This document shows positions 38,128 to 63,331 of a stretch of 64,000 nt of DNA, one piece after another. The stretch is taken from NCBI GenBank assembly GCA_017483605.1, contig JAFUWG010000036.1, forward strand, positions 1-64,000, read 5' to 3'. Every line of letters starts with the position of its first letter. Position 1 is the stretch's first letter. This DNA comes from Bacteroidaceae bacterium. GTDB lineage: Bacteria; Bacteroidota; Bacteroidia; Bacteroidales; Bacteroidaceae. The notes beneath the pieces were generated by a model that saw only the letters and a list, made by a program, of their open reading frames with translations, ran no database searches and had not been told where the DNA came from. The position numbers were made by a program, and so were the translations under genes.

Positions 38128-38929
38128 ATTTAGTTTCTCTTTTTTAGCGTCCTACGCTCAGTGTCCCACCGAGAACAAAGCCTTCAAGGCAGGGGAGAGC
38201 CTGACGTATGACCTCTATTTCAACTGGAAATTCGTGTGGGTGAAGTGTGGTGCCGCCTACTACACGATGAAGTCCACGACCTACAAGGGACAACCAGCCC
38301 TCCGCAACGACCTGCTCTTCACCAGCAACAAGCGGTGCGATGCAGTCTTCACCATGCGTGACACCCTCATCTCCTACATCACCCCACAACTCGTCCCCCT
38401 CTACTTCCGCAAAGGCTCGCTGGAAGGCAAGCACTACACCGTCGATGAGGTGTGGTACACCTATCCCAAAGGCAAGAGCCACGTCAAGCAGCACTTCCTC
38501 AATCGGCATGGTGAATGGTCGGAGCATCACCACGAATCTGACGACTGCAACTACGACATGCTTTCCATCCTATCCTTAGCACGCAACTGGAATATAACTC
38601 CCTCCCCATTACGGGGGAGGGTTGGGGAGAGGGTCTCTCTACAGGGCAAGATTGGAGAGAGGGTCTTTTTCCCCATGGCCACAGGCAAGAAAGTGGAGCG
38701 ACAAACCCTCGTCTTCCGAGGTAAAAAAGACTGGAAAGCCAACGACGGCAAGAAGTACCACTGCCTCGTCTTCTCCCTTCTCGACTACGAAGAGACCCAA
38801 AAGGACAAAGAACTCCTCCGCTTCTACGTCACCGACGACCCACGCCACCTCCCCATCCGCATCGACTTCTACCTCCGCTTCGGCACCGCCAAAGCATTTT
38901 TAGCAAAATCCACAGGTATAAACAACTAA
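38033..38929 (+). CDS. DUF3108 exported protein with repeat-derived segments
   Basis: A 298-aa protein matching DUF3108 in the body (GESLTYDLYFNWKFVWVKCG, then LRFYVTDDPRHLPIRID). The first 40 residues come from the inverted repeat at 38007-38127, and the hydrophobic stretch (TFHFSLLLFSFSFLASYAQ) could serve as its signal peptide. No other start exists downstream. Residues about 189-211 (PSPLRGRVGERV and a second GERV) come from an in-frame palindromic insert at 38596-38665. Whether the protein tolerates both is unknown. Two genes downstream of the S41 protease. Confidence 0.75.
   Translation: MKSEKFATATICHLFPHKCGSKFFTFHFSLLLFSFSFLASYAQCPTENKAFKAGESLTYDLYFNWKFVWVKCGAAYYTMKSTTYKGQPALRNDLLFTSNKRCDAVFTMRDTLISYITPQLVPLYFRKGSLEGKHYTVDEVWYTYPKGKSHVKQHFLNRHGEWSEHHHESDDCNYDMLSILSLARNWNITPSPLRGRVGERVSLQGKIGERVFFPMATGKKVERQTLVFRGKKDWKANDGKKYHCLVFSLLDYEETQKDKELLRFYVTDDPRHLPIRIDFYLRFGTAKAFLAKSTGINN
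38596..38665. repeat. Palindromic insert inside the DUF3108 gene
   Basis: CTCCCTCCCC and GGGGGAGGG form a stem around ATTAC, and GTTGGGGAGAGGGTCT recurs 30 bases on as ATTGGAGAGAGGGTCT. It keeps the reading frame and encodes PSPLRGRVGERV, a phrase that looks like repeat DNA rather than part of the protein family. Confidence 0.65.
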
Positions 38930-38944
38930 AAACACCCACAACAA

Positions 38945-38964
38945 GTCACACAACATTGTGTGAC
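38945..38964. repeat. Perfect 9-bp hairpin after DUF3108
   Basis: GTCACACAA and TTGTGTGAC flank a CA loop. A run of seven A follows, so it is not a standard terminator for the plus strand. Confidence 0.5.
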
Positions 38965-39027
38965 AAAAAAATCGTGTGGGTGAAAATGTTTGTACCTCCA
39001 CCACCTCATGCTCATCATCTTTCCAGC

Positions 39028-39134
39028 ATTTAGCCTGATTACAAATTTTAATTTGGCTTGAATACAACTTCCAATTTGGCTTGAATACACTAATTTGTAT
39101 TCAAGCCAAATTGGAAGTTGTAATCAGGCTAAAT
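39028..39134. repeat. Three-unit inverted repeat with AATTTGGCTTGAATAC unit
   Basis: Two forward copies of AATTTGGCTTGAATAC (39050-39065 and 39073-39088) and one reverse copy (39097-39112) sit inside complementary ends ATTTAGCCTGATTACA (39028-39043) and TGTAATCAGGCTAAAT (39119-39134). The layout matches the dispersed element at 14782 and 55764, although the sequence is unrelated. It lies in the 425-base spacer before the YaaW gene, where I see no gene. Confidence 0.8.
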
Positions 39135-39314
39135 ATTAGATTATATTCAAGCGAAAAACGAAAGACATTGTGGGCAGGAGCAGGAAAGGACGATGGGTAG
39201 AAGGCGTTTTTCATGTTGGGACGCAGGATTTCCTAACGCACCTTGTCTGCATTCGATGAAAAAAAATGTAACATTTTCTTTTGTACTCGGACACCTTTTG
39301 TCCATACCCCCTCC

Positions 39315-39322
39315 TAACTTTG
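39315..39322 (+). promoter_or_regulatory. -7 box of the YaaW-M48 operon
   Basis: TAACTTTG, 32 bases before ATG 39355. The nearest TTG-like runs upstream are badly spaced (14 bases). Confidence 0.45.
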
Positions 39323-39354
39323 CAGCGATAACCTAAAAACAAGGAGGAGAGAAT

Positions 39355-40083
39355 ATGAAACCTGACTGCGATTTAACCTTTTTGGCAACTTGCCCAAACG
39401 GAGAACTACGCACCCTGTGCGACATCCTCACCCACGACAAGGATGGCGAATTGAGATTGAGCGAACAACTGAGCAATAGCAGCATCTACTTGCGATGCTA
39501 TCCTCAGCACATGGCACTCATGGCAAAGGAGATGGGCGAAGAATTGAGAAAGTTCGGGAGCAACACCTTGATGACCCTCTACCGACGAGGTGAGGCAGAC
39601 AGTTACAAGACCATCGTGCAACGTGTGTGCCGCAAGATGGATGTGAAGGTTTGCGACGATGACAGTACCCCTGCGATGGAACGTTCCCTGCTCCTGTCGC
39701 TCTGCGAATCCGCCACCCAAAAGATGTCAGACGAAGAACTACGCAACATGGCAACAACAGCAGGCATACCACACAAGAACCTCAATCGGCAACTCCTTAT
39801 TGGCCTCCTGATGAGTGCCATCCGTAGCAACATGTGTTTGATGGCAAAACTGGCATGTTACATCACCTCACGCATTCTGCAAGTCCTTTTGGGTAGAAGT
39901 GTCATGATGATAGGGCTCGGCACTGTAGGACGATACCTTGGCACTGCCACCGGTCCCCTCGGATGGGCACTCTTGGCAGGATGGACCGTGAAAGACTTGG
40001 CATCACCCGCCTATCGGGTCATCGTCCCTGCCGTGATACAAGTGGCAGCCATGAGAGCACGTCAAACCACTTTACTCACTTAA
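39355..40083 (+). CDS. yaaW: YaaW/UPF0174-family protein
   Basis: A 242-aa protein that matches my memory of E. coli YaaW across its length: an N-terminal DUF3944-like part (LTFLATCPNGELRTLCDILT, then GELRLSEQL), a helical middle, and the C-terminal hydrophobic/Gly region ending in LASPAYRVIVPAVIQVAAMR. The C terminus could associate with membrane. The family has no settled function. It shares an apparent promoter with an M48 protease 10 bases downstream and begins an accessory block of unknown genes. Confidence 0.8.
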   Translation: MKPDCDLTFLATCPNGELRTLCDILTHDKDGELRLSEQLSNSSIYLRCYPQHMALMAKEMGEELRKFGSNTLMTLYRRGEADSYKTIVQRVCRKMDVKVCDDDSTPAMERSLLLSLCESATQKMSDEELRNMATTAGIPHKNLNRQLLIGLLMSAIRSNMCLMAKLACYITSRILQVLLGRSVMMIGLGTVGRYLGTATGPLGWALLAGWTVKDLASPAYRVIVPAVIQVAAMRARQTTLLT

Positions 40084-40093
40084 TACATTTCTT

Positions 40094-40876
40094 ATGATGA
40101 AAGCGAAAGACATCATGCATCCCGACGATGCCAAGGCTTTGCAGATACTCAAGAAAGTGAAAGGGCTGGACGGTGTCGTGCGGTTGTTCATGGAGAATGG
40201 CTACGAGCAGTTGTTCAGAGGAGAGAACCTGGGTTGTATGCTCAAGGTGAATGCCCATAACTTCCCCTCCGTATGGAAAATTTTTAGGGCTGTAGTTCGG
40301 AAGGTCGGCATTCGCGAACCCGAACTCTACATCTACAACGACCCCATCATGAATGCCTACACCTACGGAGAGACCCACACCTTCATCGCTCTCAGCAGTT
40401 CGTTGGTGGAACGGCTGAATCCAGAGGAACTGAAAAGCATCATTGCCCACGAGTGCGACCACATCCTCTGCAAGCACACACTCTACCAGACCCTTTTAGA
40501 CACCATCGAAGATCTGGGATTCCTCGCTGGCATCCTCACCTACTCTGTGGCAGGTCCCCTCTATCTCGCCATGCAATACTGGAGCCGCAAGAGCGAACTC
40601 TCAGCCGACCGATGCGCCGCAGCCATCGTAGGTGAACGCACCTTCCAATCCGCCATGCTGAAACTCACCTGTGGCATCGCCGCCACAGGAGGTGACCCTT
40701 ACCAACTCGTCCGTCAAGCCCAAGAGTACCACCGCATGGAAAACTCCTCATGGTGGAACCGCATCCAACAAAACTGCCGCATCGCCCTCTACACCCATCC
40801 CCAAATGTGCGAACGTGCATGGGAAATAGACCGGTGGAAAGAATCGTGGCAATACAGAAGATTACGTCAGTCATAA
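40094..40876 (+). CDS. M48-family membrane metalloprotease
   Basis: A 260-aa zinc protease with HECDH (His 119, Glu 120, His 123) and the third ligand in SELSADR (Glu 168). A membrane stretch lies between them (LGFLAGILTYSVAGPLYLAM), and an acidic/basic C terminus follows. M48 enzymes such as HtpX cut misfolded or damaged membrane proteins. Paired with YaaW here, so it may act on, or be controlled by, that protein; this is inference. Confidence 0.88.
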   Translation: MMKAKDIMHPDDAKALQILKKVKGLDGVVRLFMENGYEQLFRGENLGCMLKVNAHNFPSVWKIFRAVVRKVGIREPELYIYNDPIMNAYTYGETHTFIALSSSLVERLNPEELKSIIAHECDHILCKHTLYQTLLDTIEDLGFLAGILTYSVAGPLYLAMQYWSRKSELSADRCAAAIVGERTFQSAMLKLTCGIAATGGDPYQLVRQAQEYHRMENSSWWNRIQQNCRIALYTHPQMCERAWEIDRWKESWQYRRLRQS

Positions 40877-40893
40877 AATAAAAGCAGTTCGTT

Positions 40894-41220
40894 ATGCACA
40901 AAAAAGAGAAGAAAAATTTTGTTGCTTTTAGAAAAGTCACTATATTTGCCATCGGAAACATAGCCGATGGGAGCAACGATGCTCTTCTTGGCACATTGTG
41001 TGACAGGCTGGCAAACTTTGACCTAGTTAAATCTGGAAAATTTACACTGAGGTGTCAAAAACTGTTTAGTCAAGTCAGTCATGTTCCTTTCGAGGGACAC
41101 GGACTGCTTTTCTATCATTTGTTGACACCAGGTATTTTCCAGAACCTTACTAGGACAAGTGTAGCGAAAGTTAGGGCGTGCCCTTTTTTCGTCATAGTCA
41201 AAAGAAAAAACATATTATGA
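40894..41220 (+). CDS. Hypothetical small protein
   Basis: A 108-aa frame with a basic N terminus (MHKKEKKNFVAFRKVTIFAI). It lies in the spacer between the M48 gene and the HNH-like gene, in the same direction and within 30 bases of both. Composition is only weakly protein-like and no family is seen, so it may be a real short gene or a decayed one. The AT content rises from here. Confidence 0.4.
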   Translation: MHKKEKKNFVAFRKVTIFAIGNIADGSNDALLGTLCDRLANFDLVKSGKFTLRCQKLFSQVSHVPFEGHGLLFYHLLTPGIFQNLTRTSVAKVRACPFFVIVKRKNIL

Positions 41221-41247
41221 CTCTTTAATTAAAACCAAAAGACCTTT

Positions 41248-42996
41248 ATGGATACCACAACGAAACCTTTGCAAGAATTTGAATCATCAATTGAAGGGAT
41301 TACTCTTCAACAAATTGACAACTTCGACTTATATTTGTCAGAGCAAGAGGAAAAAGATTTGCAGGAGATAGATAAGTTATTCAGCGAAACGCCCCCCAAA
41401 AATCTTGCCTCTGAAATTTGGAGTACAATTAAAACTGCGGCACTTGATTCTGTAGAACAAATCATAGGCTTGGATGACAGAGGCGATTGGCGGTCAGAAC
41501 AAGGAGCCGTTGTCACAACCCCTTTGAACTTTAGAGCAGGGGTTGTTGCAACGGAGAACGACAGAAAACGATACGAAATGTGGAAACAACGTGTAGAGGA
41601 GAAAATAGAAACCCCAAAGCAATTTAGAGAAAGAGTCATTAACCCAGATTTTCAAAAGACCCGAGATGCTTATAAAAAAAGCCTGCAACGTCCTGATGGT
41701 TCTTATGAGAATGCCTATAATGGGAAACCTCTTTATGACCGTGATAACCCCAAAGCATATTATGCTCCAGACTCAAGTGGGGATATGACGCTTAATACAA
41801 AAGCCACGGTAGATGTTGACCATATCAATTCTGTAAAGAAACTAGTAAAAGATGACAAAGTTGCTCTATATAGTTTGTCTGACAAAGAGGGGTTTGAACA
41901 GGATATAAAAACAATTGCAAATGATGAACGCAACCTTGCTATAACTGATGCACATGGGAACCGTTCCATAAAAGACAAAGACACTTACGAACAAGCCAAA
42001 AATAACCCAGATTTAGAATGGGATGCAGACAGAGTGAAACAGGTCCAAAATAAAGCAAACAACGCAAAAAACAAACATCTCTTACAAAACGCATGGAAGG
42101 AGAAAGGTTTAGATTTGGCAAAGGGGGTAGGTAAATCCACTTTAGCAGCAACAGGAAAAATGCTTGTGGGGAAAACTATCAAGATTACCATAAATGAGAC
42201 ATATTTAGAATTTACAAAACCTGCAAATACTTTAACCGAAGCAGACAGTTATTTGGAAAGAGCCAAACGCCTAATAAAAAAAATTCTTGCTCGTGCAAAG
42301 CGAGAATTATGGGATTCATGGCACGGCATCGCTATATATGCAGGACAAAATGCTTTAGCAGAAATCACCAACCTCATTATTAACTATTTTCTATCAACAG
42401 TTAAAAATCTATTCAAACTCATACGATGTATGATTGGTTCTATTTTGAAAGCCATCAAAATGATTTTCGACTCATCAAGACCATGGGAAGAGAGACTTTT
42501 TGAAGCCATCAAAATCATCTCTGGGGGAATTGTTTTAGCAGCAGGAGTGGAACTTAACGAACTTTTGGACAAGGCGATTTCCACAAATATACCATTCCTA
42601 GCCCCTATCTCCACAGAGATTTCTGCTGTCATTTCAGGATTAGTGAGCAGTATTTTGTCCGCATTAGTTTTACTCGCTTTTGATAACATCAAAGGAGAAC
42701 TCTTTGCAGAATCGCCTTACGACCAACTTCATTTTCTTAACAGAAAGATATTGTGTACAACATCGGCGCGCATTAGTTTGGCGGCACTCAGAACCGATAT
42801 GATGATGAGAGATACGTATGATTTTATGGGTCATGCTTTTTATCAGATTGGCACCACTCGAACAAACATCATACATCAGCATGAGATTGGCAAACAACTT
42901 GACAATGAGATTGCCAGCGAGACTGAGAAACTAAAAGATCGCAACAGAAGGTTAGGTGCATTAGCCGACGAATTTATCAATGATGACAATTTTTAA
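41248..42996 (+). CDS. HNH-like domain protein with C-terminal membrane segments
   Basis: A 582-aa protein of unknown family. The N-terminal 150 residues are charged and helical. Residues about 160-245 have the pattern of an HNH-type fold: YNGKPLYDRDNPKAYYAP, then DVDHINSV (about 189-196) and NLAITDAHGNRSIKDKD (about 229-245). After a Lys-rich stretch, the C-terminal half has several hydrophobic helices (for example IKIISGGIVLAAGVELNELL and AVISGLVSSILSALVLLAF) before a polar tail. If the HNH part is active it would be a membrane-attached nuclease, but it may be a non-catalytic relative. Strongly AT-rich compared with the housekeeping genes around it. Confidence 0.55.
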   Translation: MDTTTKPLQEFESSIEGITLQQIDNFDLYLSEQEEKDLQEIDKLFSETPPKNLASEIWSTIKTAALDSVEQIIGLDDRGDWRSEQGAVVTTPLNFRAGVVATENDRKRYEMWKQRVEEKIETPKQFRERVINPDFQKTRDAYKKSLQRPDGSYENAYNGKPLYDRDNPKAYYAPDSSGDMTLNTKATVDVDHINSVKKLVKDDKVALYSLSDKEGFEQDIKTIANDERNLAITDAHGNRSIKDKDTYEQAKNNPDLEWDADRVKQVQNKANNAKNKHLLQNAWKEKGLDLAKGVGKSTLAATGKMLVGKTIKITINETYLEFTKPANTLTEADSYLERAKRLIKKILARAKRELWDSWHGIAIYAGQNALAEITNLIINYFLSTVKNLFKLIRCMIGSILKAIKMIFDSSRPWEERLFEAIKIISGGIVLAAGVELNELLDKAISTNIPFLAPISTEISAVISGLVSSILSALVLLAFDNIKGELFAESPYDQLHFLNRKILCTTSARISLAALRTDMMMRDTYDFMGHAFYQIGTTRTNIIHQHEIGKQLDNEIASETEKLKDRNRRLGALADEFINDDNF

Positions 42997-43030
42997 TCTA
43001 TTCCTTGATTATTAACACTCTATAAACACA

Positions 43031-44170
43031 ATGGAAAATCAACAAAAAACTCATGGCACAATCGTTGCCGCTAATCCACAAAAAGAAATCTTGCCTATCA
43101 CACAAAATGTTTTTAAAGAATTAACAGACATATCTACAAAAATAGGACAAGACAAGGAAGACATTCTGAAACAACTAGAACAAATCAGAAACCTAAAAAA
43201 GCCTATTGATATAAAACGACATTGGTATGGAACGGATAAAGAAAGCATTAAAAAAGCAATAGGGGGAGTTTCTTCTGATATTCGGGATTTTGCAGGTGCG
43301 TGTGAGAAAGCCTTTATCTCTCAAAGTGACAACATGTCCAATATTCTTAGACTTCTGATGTGGATTACAAATGTTGAGGTTGATTTATACAAACTCATAG
43401 ACAATCAATCTGTTGAAGGAAATGAATTTAAGAATCTTATTAGAGACTGGTGTAAAGAGCATGGTATCAAGGATGAGGAAATAGAGAAGTTGCTAAACTC
43501 TTCAGTACAACGTGCCTATACTCTTAGAGATAGAATTGAGAACTTGAGGAATGACTGCAATCTTAAAATTGGACAGAACAGCAAAGATTTGGAAGAAATA
43601 AAGCAGTATTTGTCCAATTATGACCATGTGATTCAAGAAAAAGTTGCAGAAGTGAAACGTCTTTTGAATGAAGAAGTTGAAGAACATAAAGCAGGACTAA
43701 ATGACGAATTTCGTAAGAAACAAGAAGAATTCTCTGAACTTCATAATCAGTTAGAAAGAAAAATCTCCGAGAATCGCAATGAAATAGATGCCACATTTAA
43801 AAAAATTGTTGAACAAAAGGAGGATTTAAGGCAACAACATGAAACACAAAAAGAACTTTTATCCTCTATCATAGAAGACCATCGTGCTGCTATAGAAACC
43901 AAGAATCAAGAGTTCTCACAAAACATCGAAAAACTAAGAGAATCTTGTCACTCTGATTTTTCCAATCAAAAAGATGCATTGCAAGGATGTATCACCATCT
44001 TTGAAAATCGACTTCAAGAGTTCTGCGAACAACAAGAAAACGCATCCAGCAAACAGAAAGAAGAACTATGCAATCTACAAAAAAACATTAAGCGGTGGAT
44101 TGTATGGGGTGGCATTGCCATTATTGGCATATCAAGTGTTGCATGCACAATAATAAATATTGTACTATAA
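43031..44170 (+). CDS. Coiled-coil protein with C-terminal membrane anchor
   Basis: A 379-aa protein. Residues 1-170 are mixed helical, with KRHWYGTDKESIKKAIGG and DVSSDIRDF-like segments. About 175-345 form a long coiled coil rich in Glu, Lys and Gln, and the end is one membrane span (WIVWGGIAIIGISSVACTII). It follows the HNH-like gene by 34 bases and shares its AT-rich base use, so the two are probably one unit. The layout would suit a tail-anchored partner or a membrane tether. No family is recognised. Confidence 0.65.
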   Translation: MENQQKTHGTIVAANPQKEILPITQNVFKELTDISTKIGQDKEDILKQLEQIRNLKKPIDIKRHWYGTDKESIKKAIGGVSSDIRDFAGACEKAFISQSDNMSNILRLLMWITNVEVDLYKLIDNQSVEGNEFKNLIRDWCKEHGIKDEEIEKLLNSSVQRAYTLRDRIENLRNDCNLKIGQNSKDLEEIKQYLSNYDHVIQEKVAEVKRLLNEEVEEHKAGLNDEFRKKQEEFSELHNQLERKISENRNEIDATFKKIVEQKEDLRQQHETQKELLSSIIEDHRAAIETKNQEFSQNIEKLRESCHSDFSNQKDALQGCITIFENRLQEFCEQQENASSKQKEELCNLQKNIKRWIVWGGIAIIGISSVACTIINIVL

Positions 44171-44257
44171 CCTCCATAGACTCACGTTTTTCATATTGTA
44201 TGATGCATCTATAGACAAGAGAAGAGGTGAATACTGCAACGTCTGAATTTTGCTTTT

Positions 44258-45157
44258 ATGTCGAAACTAAAGAAATGCCTATACCTCATCAATCTGCTGG
44301 AGCGGAGAGGGGCAATGAGTCTGAAGGAAATCAACGAGTGTTTTCGGCATTCGAATTTGTATGATGGGGAGATTCTGCCGAGAACTTTTGCGAGGTATAA
44401 AGAGTATATCGCCGAAACCTTCCCTTGCTATGTGGAGTTTAACGCAAGAACGGGGAAGTATGAGTTGGTGCGTGATGGAGAACTGGATGGAGAGGCGGAG
44501 GCACTGTACAACTACTTGCTGTCGGCTTACCACATAGAGGGCATGTCGGAACTGGCTTTGAAGCACCGTGACAAAATCATGCTGATGGATGCTCCGAACG
44601 GGGTGGAGAATGTGCAGATGGTGCTGGAGGCGATTGACCAAAAGAAGGGATTGGAGTGTGACTATTGGTCGTATAACAAGAAATCGAAGAAGCATCTGAC
44701 TATCATTCCTTACTTCTTGCGGACTTGGGAACAGCGATGGTATCTGGTGGCTGAGCCTTTGAATCACCACCATGGACAATCGGTGTTTGCCTTGGAACGA
44801 ATGTACAGCATGTGGTTGACGGAGGAGAAGATGTTGCCATCGAAGAACATCCATGTGGAGGAGTATTTCGAGGGGTGTTTCGGCATTAACCACAGCGACG
44901 AGCCGAAACCTGAGAGAATACGAATCAAGGTGTATGACACACAAGTGGAGTATGTACGTGCCTTACCCATCCACGAATCACAAAGGGAGGTGGAAACGAC
45001 CAAGGAGTGGAGCCTTTTTGAGTATCGAGTGGAACCTTGCTATAACTTCTACCAACAACTACTTTGGCATCGCGAGAAACTGGAAGTCGTGGAGCCTCAA
45101 CACGTCAGGGACGAAATGCGTGGCATTGTGGAAAAGATGCTGAAAGCGTATTCATAA
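44258..45157 (+). CDS. WYL-domain transcriptional regulator
   Basis: A 299-aa regulator with an N-terminal helix-turn-helix (about 10-60) and a WYL domain, in which YFLRTWEQRWYLVAEPLN holds the W-Y-L trio. A C-terminal WCX-like region follows (IRIKVYDTQVEYVRALP). WYL proteins sense nucleic-acid or nucleotide ligands and are common next to defence genes. GC is back near that of the housekeeping genes. It could control the YaaW-to-coiled-coil block before it or the ATPase after it. Confidence 0.85.
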   Translation: MSKLKKCLYLINLLERRGAMSLKEINECFRHSNLYDGEILPRTFARYKEYIAETFPCYVEFNARTGKYELVRDGELDGEAEALYNYLLSAYHIEGMSELALKHRDKIMLMDAPNGVENVQMVLEAIDQKKGLECDYWSYNKKSKKHLTIIPYFLRTWEQRWYLVAEPLNHHHGQSVFALERMYSMWLTEEKMLPSKNIHVEEYFEGCFGINHSDEPKPERIRIKVYDTQVEYVRALPIHESQREVETTKEWSLFEYRVEPCYNFYQQLLWHREKLEVVEPQHVRDEMRGIVEKMLKAYS

Positions 45158-45234
45158 TAAAAAATGTCTCCAATATTTGGTAAAGTCAAAAAAAATGACG
45201 TAATTTGCGCTTCATAAAAAGCGAAGCGTAAAAT

Positions 45235-46368
45235 ATGAAAGATTTGAACAACCCCTTTGTAACATACGGCTATAAGGGTGCAGCCTACTTTTGTGACCGT
45301 GATATTGAGACCGAAAAAGTAATGACTGGCCTCTATAATGAACGTAACATCACACTGATTGCCCCTCGCCGAATAGGGAAAACAGGACTCATCCACCACG
45401 TTTTCACGAAAATTAAAACGGACCAACCCGAGGTTCGTTGTTTCTACATTGACATCTTTGCGACAAAAACGTTAGAGCAGTTCATACAATTATTAGCCCG
45501 CAATATTGTTGGGAAACTGGATTCTCCCACACAAGCCACGCTGCGAAAAGTTTCTGAATTTTTCAGCAGTTTCCGCCCAACCATGACCTTTGACCCGCAA
45601 ACGGGCATACCCACATTTTCATTAGATATTGTCGCAAATCAAGAAGAACAGTCGTTGCGACGCATCTTCGAATATCTACAGCAATCGGGAAAAAGGTGTT
45701 ACATAGCCATTGACGAATTCCAACGCATCACGGAATACACAGAAACCAACACAGAGGCACTACTGCGTTCTTACATCCAATTTCTTCCCAATGTCTATTT
45801 CATCTTTGCAGGCAGTCAACACCATTTAATGACAGATATGTTCTTATCTGCCAAACGCCCTTTCTACCAGAGTTCTCAAATGGTCTTGCTCAAGGAAATC
45901 GAAGAACCTGTTTATTACCAGTTCGCTGCTCATTTCTTTAAGGCGACGCAGACAGCCCTTTCCTGCGAGGTTTTCCAACGACTTTATCAACAACTGGAAG
46001 GTCAGACATGGTATCTGCAAGCCACCCTCAACCGCCTATACTCCTACCACTTAAAAGAAATTAGCGAGGAAAACATCTGTCAAGCCATTGAGGAACTCAT
46101 TGATGAGCAGGAGGTGGCTTTTGAAAATTATTACGCATCGCTTACTTCCAACCAGTGTGCCCTCCTTTTGGCTATTGCAAAAGAAATGGGTGTCAAGTCA
46201 CCTATGGCACGTTCTTTCATTCAGAAGTACCGCCTTCCAGCATTAAGCAGTGTAAAAACAGCCTTGAATGCCTTGCAAGAACGTCAACTCATCTACCAAT
46301 ATCAAGGTGCTTACATTGTCTATGACCGCTTTTTCTCCATGTGGTTGAGAAAACGAGTTGCAAGTTAA
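45235..46368 (+). CDS. Archaeal-type (DUF234-like) AAA ATPase
   Basis: A 377-aa STAND/AAA-type ATPase with Walker A APRRIGKTG (43-51), Walker B CYIAIDEFQ (Asp 160, Glu 161), sensor FIFAGSQHHLM and a C-terminal winged helix (LTSNQCALLLAIAKEMG to the end). This is the archaeal ATPase family common in Bacteroidota, which often occurs alone. A small palindrome (GCGCTTC and GAAGCG) lies just upstream of the start. No nuclease domain is fused, unlike some relatives with a DUF234 tail. Role unknown. Confidence 0.85.
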   Translation: MKDLNNPFVTYGYKGAAYFCDRDIETEKVMTGLYNERNITLIAPRRIGKTGLIHHVFTKIKTDQPEVRCFYIDIFATKTLEQFIQLLARNIVGKLDSPTQATLRKVSEFFSSFRPTMTFDPQTGIPTFSLDIVANQEEQSLRRIFEYLQQSGKRCYIAIDEFQRITEYTETNTEALLRSYIQFLPNVYFIFAGSQHHLMTDMFLSAKRPFYQSSQMVLLKEIEEPVYYQFAAHFFKATQTALSCEVFQRLYQQLEGQTWYLQATLNRLYSYHLKEISEENICQAIEELIDEQEVAFENYYASLTSNQCALLLAIAKEMGVKSPMARSFIQKYRLPALSSVKTALNALQERQLIYQYQGAYIVYDRFFSMWLRKRVAS

Positions 46369-46435
46369 AAAGTGGAGTGTCGGACTTTTTTTCCTTACCC
46401 CATCAGATGAAACTTCTTCCTTGGATTTATCATAG

Positions 46436-46471
46436 AGGCGAGCCATTCGGAACAATCCGAATGGCTCGCCT
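46436..46471. terminator. Strong bidirectional hairpin between the ATPase gene and carB
   Basis: AGGCGAGCCATTCGGA (46436-46451) pairs perfectly over 16 bases with TCCGAATGGCTCGCCT (46456-46471) around a 4-base loop. It is placed between converging genes and followed by a T-rich stretch on the plus strand. Confidence 0.75.
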
Positions 46472-46601
46472 CCTATAGAGAATTTATTTTCAAGTAAAAC
46501 CGATATTGTTCGCCTTCCGCTTATTCGAAAAAGGCACTCGGTCTTTTTCTTTAAGCATCATACTCCTTGGGAGAAGTTCTTGGGTGCTTTGCCCCAAGAA
46601 G

Positions 46602-61724: not shown

Positions 61725-62038
61725 AGAGTGTAATATGAACAAATAGACATAACAACATAAAGAAGCGTTGACTTTTTGATTCTTGTTCCAGAAAATTCGC
61801 CAAAAATATCTCTCAAGATGATAGAAGTTGATGCTCGCGTTTTGGCGCGGGCTGATACTTGTATTTGAGAGAACGGCGTTTGGCGATGCCTCTGGAACGA
61901 ACACACAGAATCAGACTCGTGCCGTTTTTATGCCCTTTGATTAAGAAAGTTTAACACCTTTGAAAGTTAACATTGCCGCATGTATTGCGTATATATAATA
62001 TATATAAATAGTAGGAACAAATATAAACGAAACGAACA
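61725..62038. other. Gene-free, AT-rich spacer before the thioredoxin-like gene
   Basis: Short frames here have no recognisable content. There is a weak CACCTTTG box at about 61956 and an AT dinucleotide run (TATATATAATATATATAA) at about 61989-62006. Confidence 0.4.
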
Positions 62039-63331
62039 ATGAACAAGAAAACCATCATCACCGCACTGTTCGCCCTCGTCACAATAGCGGGGCAGGCACA
62101 AGTGAAATGCCACATTGAAGGCAAGTTTGTTGATAACAATTGGGGCGACGAAGTCGTCATCTGCAAAATGGGGACCGACCTGCGCGTCAATGATGCACCA
62201 GAATGGCATCACAAGGCCGTGAACGGGCACTTCGAGTGTGACATAGAAACGGACGTTCCCGAAATGTACGAGATTATTCCCTATAAACAGTACATAGAGA
62301 CTTCCAGTTACTATTACGGTTGGTTCATCGTGGAGAACGGAACGGTAAGCATAGAAATCTTTGGCGACAAGGCTCCAAAGATAGAGAGTACTGGCGACGA
62401 GGGCCGATTGCATCAGGCAATGGATAGCGTTGCAGGAGTTCGGTTTCGTAACGAAATGGAGAGGATAGACCGCGAATTGGAGGAACACAAGGAAAAATAC
62501 TTCAAACCCGAATTCCTGTCACTCATGGAGATAGTCAAAAACATGGATAGGGAAAGCCTACCCAAGACATACGTTGACAGTATCAACAATGTGATGGACT
62601 ACTATTATGACAACGAACGCGAGAGCTACACCGACGAAGGCTGGCAACTTTTTCAGCGCAGTGACAGCCTAAGCCGTCTCAGTTATCCGTTCCGAGCAGA
62701 ATATTACGAGCAACACCCCATGCTTTGGGCTTACTACCACGTATTGCAGTCAATCGAAATGCTCAGGTATGCGGACGTAGACCGGAATTTCGACGCCACG
62801 CCACATGAGCAAATGGTCTCACTCTACGAAACAAAGCTATGCAATTTGTATAAAGGTCATCCCGTTCACGGACAGATTGCCACAGCCTTAACAGCACTTC
62901 GCTTTCAGCCCGGCAAGCCCTACATTGATTATAATGTTCGCAACACCGATGGTCAAATCGTCCCCATCTCTTCGCTCATCCGTGGAAAAGTGGCGCTTAT
63001 CGACCTCTGGGCATCGTGGTGCGGCCCCTGCCGTCGGCATAGCAAGGCCATGATTCCCGTCTATGAGAAGTACAAAGACAAAGGATTTACTGTCGTAGCC
63101 ATAGCCCGCGAACGCAAGCGAGAAGACATGGAAAACGCGGTGCGAAAGGATGGCTACCCATGGACGAGCCTGTTGGAACTGAACGACGAGAATCAGGTGT
63201 GGCGTAAGAACGGTGCCGGCAATGCAGGCGGAGCCATGTTCCTTATCGATCGCGACGGCACCATTCTCTCCACCTCCACCGATGCAGAGGAATTAGAGCC
63301 ACTCATCAAGAAAGCACTAAACATCGAATAA
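62039..63331 (+). CDS. Exported TlpA/ResA-like thioredoxin protein
   Basis: A 430-aa protein with a signal peptide (MNKKTIITALFALVTIAGQA), a DUF4369-like N-terminal domain, a helical middle and a C-terminal thioredoxin fold with WASWCGPCRR (Cys 328 and Cys 331). Such proteins reduce disulfides in the periplasm, for example in cytochrome c maturation or stress repair; the partner is not known here. Confidence 0.88.
   Translation: MNKKTIITALFALVTIAGQAQVKCHIEGKFVDNNWGDEVVICKMGTDLRVNDAPEWHHKAVNGHFECDIETDVPEMYEIIPYKQYIETSSYYYGWFIVENGTVSIEIFGDKAPKIESTGDEGRLHQAMDSVAGVRFRNEMERIDRELEEHKEKYFKPEFLSLMEIVKNMDRESLPKTYVDSINNVMDYYYDNERESYTDEGWQLFQRSDSLSRLSYPFRAEYYEQHPMLWAYYHVLQSIEMLRYADVDRNFDATPHEQMVSLYETKLCNLYKGHPVHGQIATALTALRFQPGKPYIDYNVRNTDGQIVPISSLIRGKVALIDLWASWCGPCRRHSKAMIPVYEKYKDKGFTVVAIARERKREDMENAVRKDGYPWTSLLELNDENQVWRKNGAGNAGGAMFLIDRDGTILSTSTDAEELEPLIKKALNIE

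What the first reader, a model, noticed from the sequence alone, without database searches (positions are those of the whole stretch)
39355..44170. Candidate membrane-associated module: YaaW + M48 protease + HNH-like protein + coiled-coil anchor
A YaaW/UPF0174 protein and an M48 metalloprotease share one apparent promoter. They are followed in the same direction by a small ORF, a 582-aa protein with an HNH-like segment plus several membrane helices, and a coiled-coil protein with a C-terminal membrane anchor. The last three are clearly AT-richer than the housekeeping genes around them. The mix of a protease, a nuclease-like domain and membrane tethers, followed by a WYL regulator and an ATPase, has the look of a defence or stress module. 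Seen: order, motifs, membrane segments, base composition. Inferred: that they work together.
Basis: partly seen in the sequence, partly recalled or inferred. Interest (0 to 1): 0.8.

Follow-up and report, generated by a model that had tools for sequence, protein, structure and literature searches.

The report
Anti-jumbo-phage island with protease partner
An acquired block of genes in a gut-type bacterium pairs a known sensor of giant viruses with an unexpected protein-cutting enzyme, next to a second, membrane-tied, probably DNA-cutting module and an uncatalogued structured RNA.

Summary
The genes are real and form a defence-like island, but not quite as described. 39355-40083 (YaaW) is a JukA, the sensor of the Juk anti-jumbo-phage system (PADLOC 5e-45). 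An M48 protease with an intact active site follows it. The ten nearest of 80 JukA loci have this M48 as next gene, none of the other 70 does, and the eleven M48-paired JukAs form one clade (100/99). M48 has probably replaced JukB as effector in Bacteroidales. 41248-42996 matches phage-defence candidate PDC-M40B (1.6e-29); its HNH-like motif is kept in 11 of 14 ORFs compared. M40B lies near JukA in four of the 80 loci (two with identical JukA). Five of eight close WYL homologues lie near JukA. Seven of 17 same-genus loci lack the whole 7.6-kb block. The 108-aa "small ORF" is probably not a gene but a structured RNA with strong covariation, unmatched in Rfam; similar RNAs precede M40B or JukA elsewhere. 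JukA-M48 and M40B-M40C are separable and differ in base composition, so I read two co-located modules; coupling is unproved. No structure prediction or experiment was possible.

The parts
38909..46528 (.). Inserted island, absent at the same site in relatives
   Evidence: DUF3108 and carB are neighbours in 7 of 17 same-genus loci; homology to L131 stops at 38908 and resumes at 46529
39355..40083 (+). JukA (YaaW/DUF3944), inferred sensor
   Evidence: PADLOC JukA 5.4e-45; DUF3944 6e-13; clade of M48-paired JukAs 100/99
40094..40876 (+). M48 metalloprotease, inferred effector of the Juk-type module
   Evidence: Pfam M48 7.5e-22; HECDH and SELSAD present; homologue directly after JukA in 10 of 80 loci
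40997..41190 (+). Structured RNA, long extended hairpin plus terminator-like end; occupies the place of the supposed 108-aa ORF
   Evidence: z -6.1; double changes in 49 of 57 pairs over 12 sequences, on an alignment fitted to the structure; no Rfam match
41248..42996 (+). PDC-M40B-like protein: HNH-like motif (about residues 185-245) and hydrophobic segments at 388-487
   Evidence: PADLOC 1.6e-29; invariant D, H, A, N, N in 11 sequences
43031..44170 (+). Coiled-coil-like protein with C-terminal membrane anchor (M40C position)
   Evidence: C-terminal segment 361-379; homologue after M40B in L022; PDC-M40C match only E=0.14
44258..45157 (+). WYL regulator associated with JukA loci
   Evidence: WYL and WCX domains; 5 of 8 homologues of at least 50% identity lie near JukA
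45235..46368 (+). ATPase_2-type ATPase, inside the island but membership in the system doubtful
   Evidence: Pfam; four further relatives in the same genome

Best explanation
A composite anti-phage island of two co-located modules. Module 1 is a Juk-type system: JukA senses an early jumbo-phage infection structure (inferred from the Pseudomonas system) and, in this Bacteroidales clade, works with an M48 metalloprotease in place of JukB. The protease would cut phage early proteins or membrane-associated proteins at the site (inferred), and a WYL protein would set expression (inferred). Module 2 is a PDC-M40-like pair: an HNH-motif protein with membrane segments and a coiled-coil, tail-anchored partner, headed by a structured RNA. 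It would act as a membrane-tethered nuclease (inferred). Shown here: families, intact motifs, clade-wide JukA-M48 pairing, recurrence of M40B near JukA, empty sites, RNA covariation. Not shown: phage resistance, coupling of the modules, nuclease or protease activity, or what the RNA does.
For: JukA and M40B profile matches. M48 next to JukA in the 10 nearest of 80 loci and none of the other 70, one clade, distances correlated (r 0.85). The four other M48s of 54-58% identity over their length in 301 genomes all follow JukA. WYL near JukA in 5 of 8. M40B near JukA in 4 of 80 loci plus the window, in two JukA lineages. Empty site. HNH-like motif. Base composition splits the two modules.
Against: No activity was tested. 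M40B-JukA co-occurrence in the family set is modest without the window (2 of 7 JukA genomes, P=0.028). JukA is a long branch in the tree (1.1). The PDC-M40C match of the partner is not significant, and no PDC-M40A was returned. The M40B profile A4 found no solved HNH structure, and L022, the closest M40B by its C-terminal half, lacks the motif. The ATPase may be unrelated.
Confidence: 0.6

Rival explanations
1. One integrated system: JukA senses, M48 activates the M40B/M40C pair by proteolysis, and the RNA and WYL protein control it.
For: Same strand and short gaps in the window; M40B recurs near JukA in four of 80 loci; one inserted block.
Against: M40B not seen in nine of eleven JukA-M48 loci, and JukA not found in 10 of 13 M40B genomes; gene order differs; the other lineage with M40B next to JukA (L175, L177, L179) has no M48 partner; composition differs.
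Confidence: 0.2
2. Not defence: JukA/YaaW and M48 are an envelope-stress pair, and M40B/C is an unrelated mobile gene pair that landed beside it.
For: M48/HtpX proteins commonly serve membrane quality control (recalled); YaaW is annotated as a conserved E. coli protein (control rings in E. coli).
Against: JukA is sporadic (8 of 301 family genomes); the block is absent from seven of 17 same-genus sites; JukA and M40B are PADLOC families; WYL partner.
Confidence: 0.12
3. The RNA is a common Bacteroidales element unrelated to defence that happens to lie here.
For: Members also lie at window 61768-61929 and L131 12178-12345, away from JukA. With filters off, a palindrome at the end of L018 scores 32 bits on both strands, so some weak hits may be generic hairpins.
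Against: After collapsing near copies, 4 of 7 hits (3 of 6 without the window seed, P=2e-4) lie within 1 kb 5' of JukA or M40B on the same strand, a region of 4.4% of the bases. The base set is mostly JukA and M40B loci, so the background is not a fair genome sample.
Confidence: 0.5

Closest known systems
Juk (jumbo phage killer, JukA-JukB) of Pseudomonas aeruginosa
   Same: JukA sensor family; partner gene directly after it; the review says JukA works with diverse effectors (PMC13282480, passages)
   Different: No JukB match among the window proteins; an M48 protease stands in its place; Bacteroidales host; WYL regulator and an M40 module nearby
PADLOC phage-defence candidate PDC-M40
   Same: M40B match over residues 84-481, followed by a coiled-coil-like anchored protein
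   Different: M40C match not significant (E=0.14); no M40A returned; structured RNA in front; the candidate has no paper in the library searched
HNH nucleases (Cas9 HNH domain and others)
   Same: DH...N...N motif; profile match to a Cas9 HNH chain, E=0.0043
   Different: No RuvC or other Cas9 part recognised; longer insert between H and the first N; hydrophobic C-terminal half
HtpX-type M48 proteases
   Same: HEXXH and SELSAD, HtpX-like core
   Different: 260 aa with one weak hydrophobic segment; below the HtpX equivalog cut-offs

Membership tests
Juk system | JukA homologue | tested here: met
   PADLOC JukA 5.4e-45 and two further JukA models
Juk system | JukB effector beside JukA | tested here: not met
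   no JukB match returned among eight window proteins; M48 instead
Juk system | protection against nucleus-forming jumbo phages | not testable with these tools
   needs phage challenge
PDC-M40 | M40B protein | tested here: met
   1.6e-29
PDC-M40 | M40C protein | tested here: inconclusive
   E=0.14, weaker than other coiled-coil models
PDC-M40 | M40A protein | tested here: inconclusive
   no M40A match returned; whether the library holds such a model was not checked
HNH nuclease | conserved catalytic H and N residues | tested here: met
   11 of 14 ORFs compared carry DH; invariant D, H, A, N, N in those 11
HNH nuclease | beta-beta-alpha-metal fold | not testable with these tools
   structure prediction switched off
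Peptidase M48 | HEXXH zinc site and downstream glutamate | tested here: met
   Pfam 7.5e-22; alignment
known Rfam RNA families (6S and others) | match at gathering score | tested here: not met
   none in the window and only a tRNA in eight relatives' loci; E-value searches gave chance-level hits

The most novel reading that the evidence does not exclude
A new anti-jumbo-phage architecture in Bacteroidales: JukA-guided proteolysis by an M48 enzyme, joined to a membrane-tethered HNH nuclease pair whose activity or expression depends on a new structured RNA family that recurs 5' of M40B and JukA genes.
Probability: 0.15. Interest if true: 0.88.

Novelty: new variant of a known kind. Interest (0 to 1): 0.62.

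Why it matters
Juk is known from Pseudomonas with a pore-forming effector. A clade-wide protease partner would mean that JukA is a sensor with exchangeable killing arms, and that proteolysis at the infection site may stop a jumbo phage. It makes the question of what JukA recruits directly testable in named Bacteroidales (Phocaeicola faecium L147 and Xylanibacter ruminicola L151 carry the pair). The RNA, unmatched in Rfam, gives a concrete handle on whether structured RNAs act in or regulate such islands.

Tried and rejected
Rejected or not supported: the 108-aa small ORF as a gene. The island as prophage debris: no phage structural or replication gene recognised in the eight proteins scanned with PHROGs, though JukA matches phrog_13238 of unknown function; M40B gave no relative in viral contigs by pattern search and none in plasmids by tblastn. 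The RNA as a known family. An exact 30-mer of the RNA in viral contigs: none; blastn in phages and plasmids: none. PF03981 was not the right family for this YaaW protein (no match in the own genome).

Literature (search listings only unless stated): no paper with PDC-M40; JukA with M48, YaaW or DUF3944 gave two irrelevant papers; combinations of defence, HNH, coiled-coil, protease and RNA terms gave none or, apart from the review, nothing relevant in the rows listed. Passages only were seen of PMC13282480 and PMC12571901. The primary Juk paper (PMC12147104) was not held, so I do not claim that JukA-M48 is unreported.

Rows dropped: two of the 13 M40B genomes (G245, G094) match only marginally at loci where no M40B gene was recognised; probable false positives. 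Alignment A1 used 10 M40B ORFs and left out the split L023. The RNA statistics left out L271 (fetched because of the RNA), L172 (E 0.11), L151 and L178 (E above 0.5), and L018 (found later). L150 was left out of the distance test.

Full report
What is there. The window is part of a 3.06-Mb, 56-contig genome. A genome of the same genus, G063, has a contig (L068) with the length and gene positions of a record titled uncultured Prevotellaceae RUG242 (L153), so the host is probably a rumen- or gut-type Prevotellaceae. The ORFs named in the finding exist at the stated places. The first is a JukA: three PADLOC JukA models match, best 5.4e-45, with Pfam DUF3944. The second is an M48 protease (7.5e-22) with HECDH and SELSAD. 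The 582-aa protein matches PADLOC PDC-M40B at 1.6e-29. The 379-aa protein looks like a coiled coil with a C-terminal anchor; its PDC-M40C match is only E=0.14.

It is an island. Seventeen same-genus loci were taken at the DUF3108 gene. DUF3108 and carB are neighbours in seven of them (L131, L133, L136, L137, L138, L140, L145; gaps 108-360 bp, with at most a short ORF between), and L130 has one other gene between them. The remaining nine have other genes there, a contig end, or no carB or DUF3108 in view. In the window the gap is 7672 bp. Homology to L131 stops at 38908 and resumes at 46529. All seven called genes, WYL and ATPase included, therefore lie in one inserted stretch, though it need not have entered in one step.

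JukA and M48 are a pair. In 301 family genomes JukA is in 8. M48-like sequences are in 96. The four full-length ones at 54-58% identity outside the window (G058, G063, G182, G101) all directly follow JukA; a 33-residue piece at 67% in G200 was not followed up. A scan of genome contigs for JukA found 207 relatives, of which the best 80 were kept. The ten nearest (L146-L155, all Bacteroidales) have M48 as next gene on the same strand; none of the other 70 does, though L181 and L192 have a weak M48 match three genes on and L202 one two genes upstream. By all-against-all comparison this M48 cluster occurs in ten of the 80 loci, each time beside JukA. A maximum-likelihood tree of 83 JukA rows puts the eleven M48-paired ones in one clade, 100/99; the window's JukA is on a long branch. 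JukA and M48 distances correlate (r 0.85, 10 genomes, L150 left out, 0 of 5000 permutations); shared descent of the hosts may contribute. The zinc-site motif is intact in 10 of 11; in L150 the gene breaks off.

Regulator. WYL homologues of at least 50% identity are in 8 of 301 genomes. In G063 and G251 the gene is next to JukA, in G113 one gene away, in the window four called genes downstream (one of them the RNA stretch), and in G182 in the same run of genes. G162 and G134 have it with no JukA nearby, and G141 has a broken copy. Three JukA-M48 loci have it just upstream (L153, which is G063, L154, L155). A Citrobacter plasmid also has a WYL gene overlapping a JukA-like gene.

The M40 module. 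PDC-M40B is in 13 of 301 family genomes, two of them marginal, and in 2 of 296 phylum genomes, one being the window's. It lies in the same locus as JukA in L147, L175, L177 and L179 of 80 (L177 and L179 have identical JukA) and in the window. In the family set, 3 of 8 JukA genomes also have M40B, one of them on another contig (P=0.003; 2 of 7 without the window, P=0.028). M40B is followed by a coiled-coil-like anchored protein (window, L022), by a small CxxCxxCC protein, mostly a TerB protein, and a PDC-M09A-like membrane protein (L015, L016 without TerB, L017, L175, L177; identities by profile for L017 only), or by other genes such as an AAA ATPase. Eleven homologues share invariant D, H, A, N and N; L022 and the split L023 lack the motif. 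The profile matches the HNH domain of a Cas9 chain (E=0.0043; 0.02 on the segment alone), but profile A4 found no chain. Single members weakly match WHH, GmrSD_C, HNH_4, GH-E and HNH, among unrelated families of similar E-value. An HNH-type active site is likely; the fold is untested because structure prediction was off.

The small ORF is probably an RNA. Its reading frame recurs in one other of 45 genus genomes, with three stops, while the DNA there is 77% identical over 314 bp with frame-breaking indels. The + strand folds at -86 kcal/mol, z -6.1. Covariance models found related RNAs upstream of M40B in L024 (68.6 bits), upstream of JukA in L181 and L192, and between JukA and M40B in L177, L179 and L175 (26-32 bits). 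Others are in L164, L166, L172, elsewhere in the window (61768-61929) and in L131. Seven further sequences folded alone gave z from -3.5 to -7.4. Twelve sequences aligned by the model show 92% of cells paired and double changes in 49 of 57 pairs, against 13-20 in slid controls; the alignment was fitted to the structure and so leans towards it. A palindrome in L018 also scores 32 bits with filters off, so scores near 30 alone are not proof. A separate motif scan recovers ten of these twelve members (not L131 or L172) and L179, with AAA before and (A/G)CC after the second stem. It gave 22 rows, six of them other short matches, against 2-12 in resampled controls; the motif was written after seeing the members. 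Four of seven collapsed hits lie within 1 kb 5' of JukA or M40B on the same strand (3 of 6 without the seed, P=2e-4). With filters off, no good hit was found near M40B in L015-L017, L019, L020 or L022, nor near JukA in L146, L148, L153, L154, L158 or L206. So the RNA is not a constant partner. That it is a real RNA family is likely (my estimate 0.85); that it serves defence is open.

How it probably works. From passages of a review (PMC13282480): JukA detects early phage proteins on the early infection vesicle and works with diverse effectors, including phospholipases and transcriptional regulators; JukB forms pores. By analogy I infer that JukA recruits M48 here. The HNH/membrane pair would be a second, separable arm. 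Composition supports two sources: JukA, M48 and WYL have host-like GC3, whereas M40B and M40C are lower than all 36 genes compared. In G063 the order is WYL-JukA-M48 and no M40B is seen on that 3.7-kb contig, as if the RNA-M40B-M40C part had joined later.

Limits. No experiment or structure was possible. Gene calls in relatives come from a simple ORF caller of mine. Several loci are short contigs, so absences are lower bounds on presence. The primary Juk paper was not readable here. I could not test whether jumbo phages of the relevant kind infect this host.

Noticed in passing
window 39028-39134: A 43-nt inverted repeat (91% complementary arms) at the left edge of the island; similar sequence occurs at eight places in the genome, a palindromic repeat family.
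   Followed up: partly
window 61768-61929: A second candidate member of the structured RNA family (33 bits, z -5.8 on 61750-61945), before a gene at 62039 and away from JukA; L131 has a counterpart.
   Followed up: partly
L271 8593-13976 (G211): The RNA's closest relative lies before genes for a zinc-ribbon-like protein (by eye), an EcsC protein and a 430-aa protein, with a Schlafen AlbA_2 gene upstream on the other strand: another possible defence or stress island.
   Followed up: partly
L072-L080: M48 relatives at 35-39% identity, most with C-terminal zinc ribbons, lie in a different recurrent neighbourhood with RyR-domain and zinc-ribbon proteins.
   Followed up: partly
L022 8845-10653: This M40B homologue keeps the membrane half (33% identity to the window's residues 291-582) but has a different N-terminal half without the HNH motif, as if the effector domain had been swapped.
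   Followed up: no
L148 3888-5451 and L218: Two JukA-like genes in tandem.
   Followed up: no
L158, L175, L177, L179, L206: A 566-583-aa protein family without Pfam match (one member scanned) lies directly before JukA in five loci: another candidate Juk partner.
   Followed up: no
L149, L150, L151, L152: A 375-381-aa family lies upstream of JukA in these JukA-M48 loci and has a 463-aa relative in L159; one member scanned gave no Pfam match.
   Followed up: no
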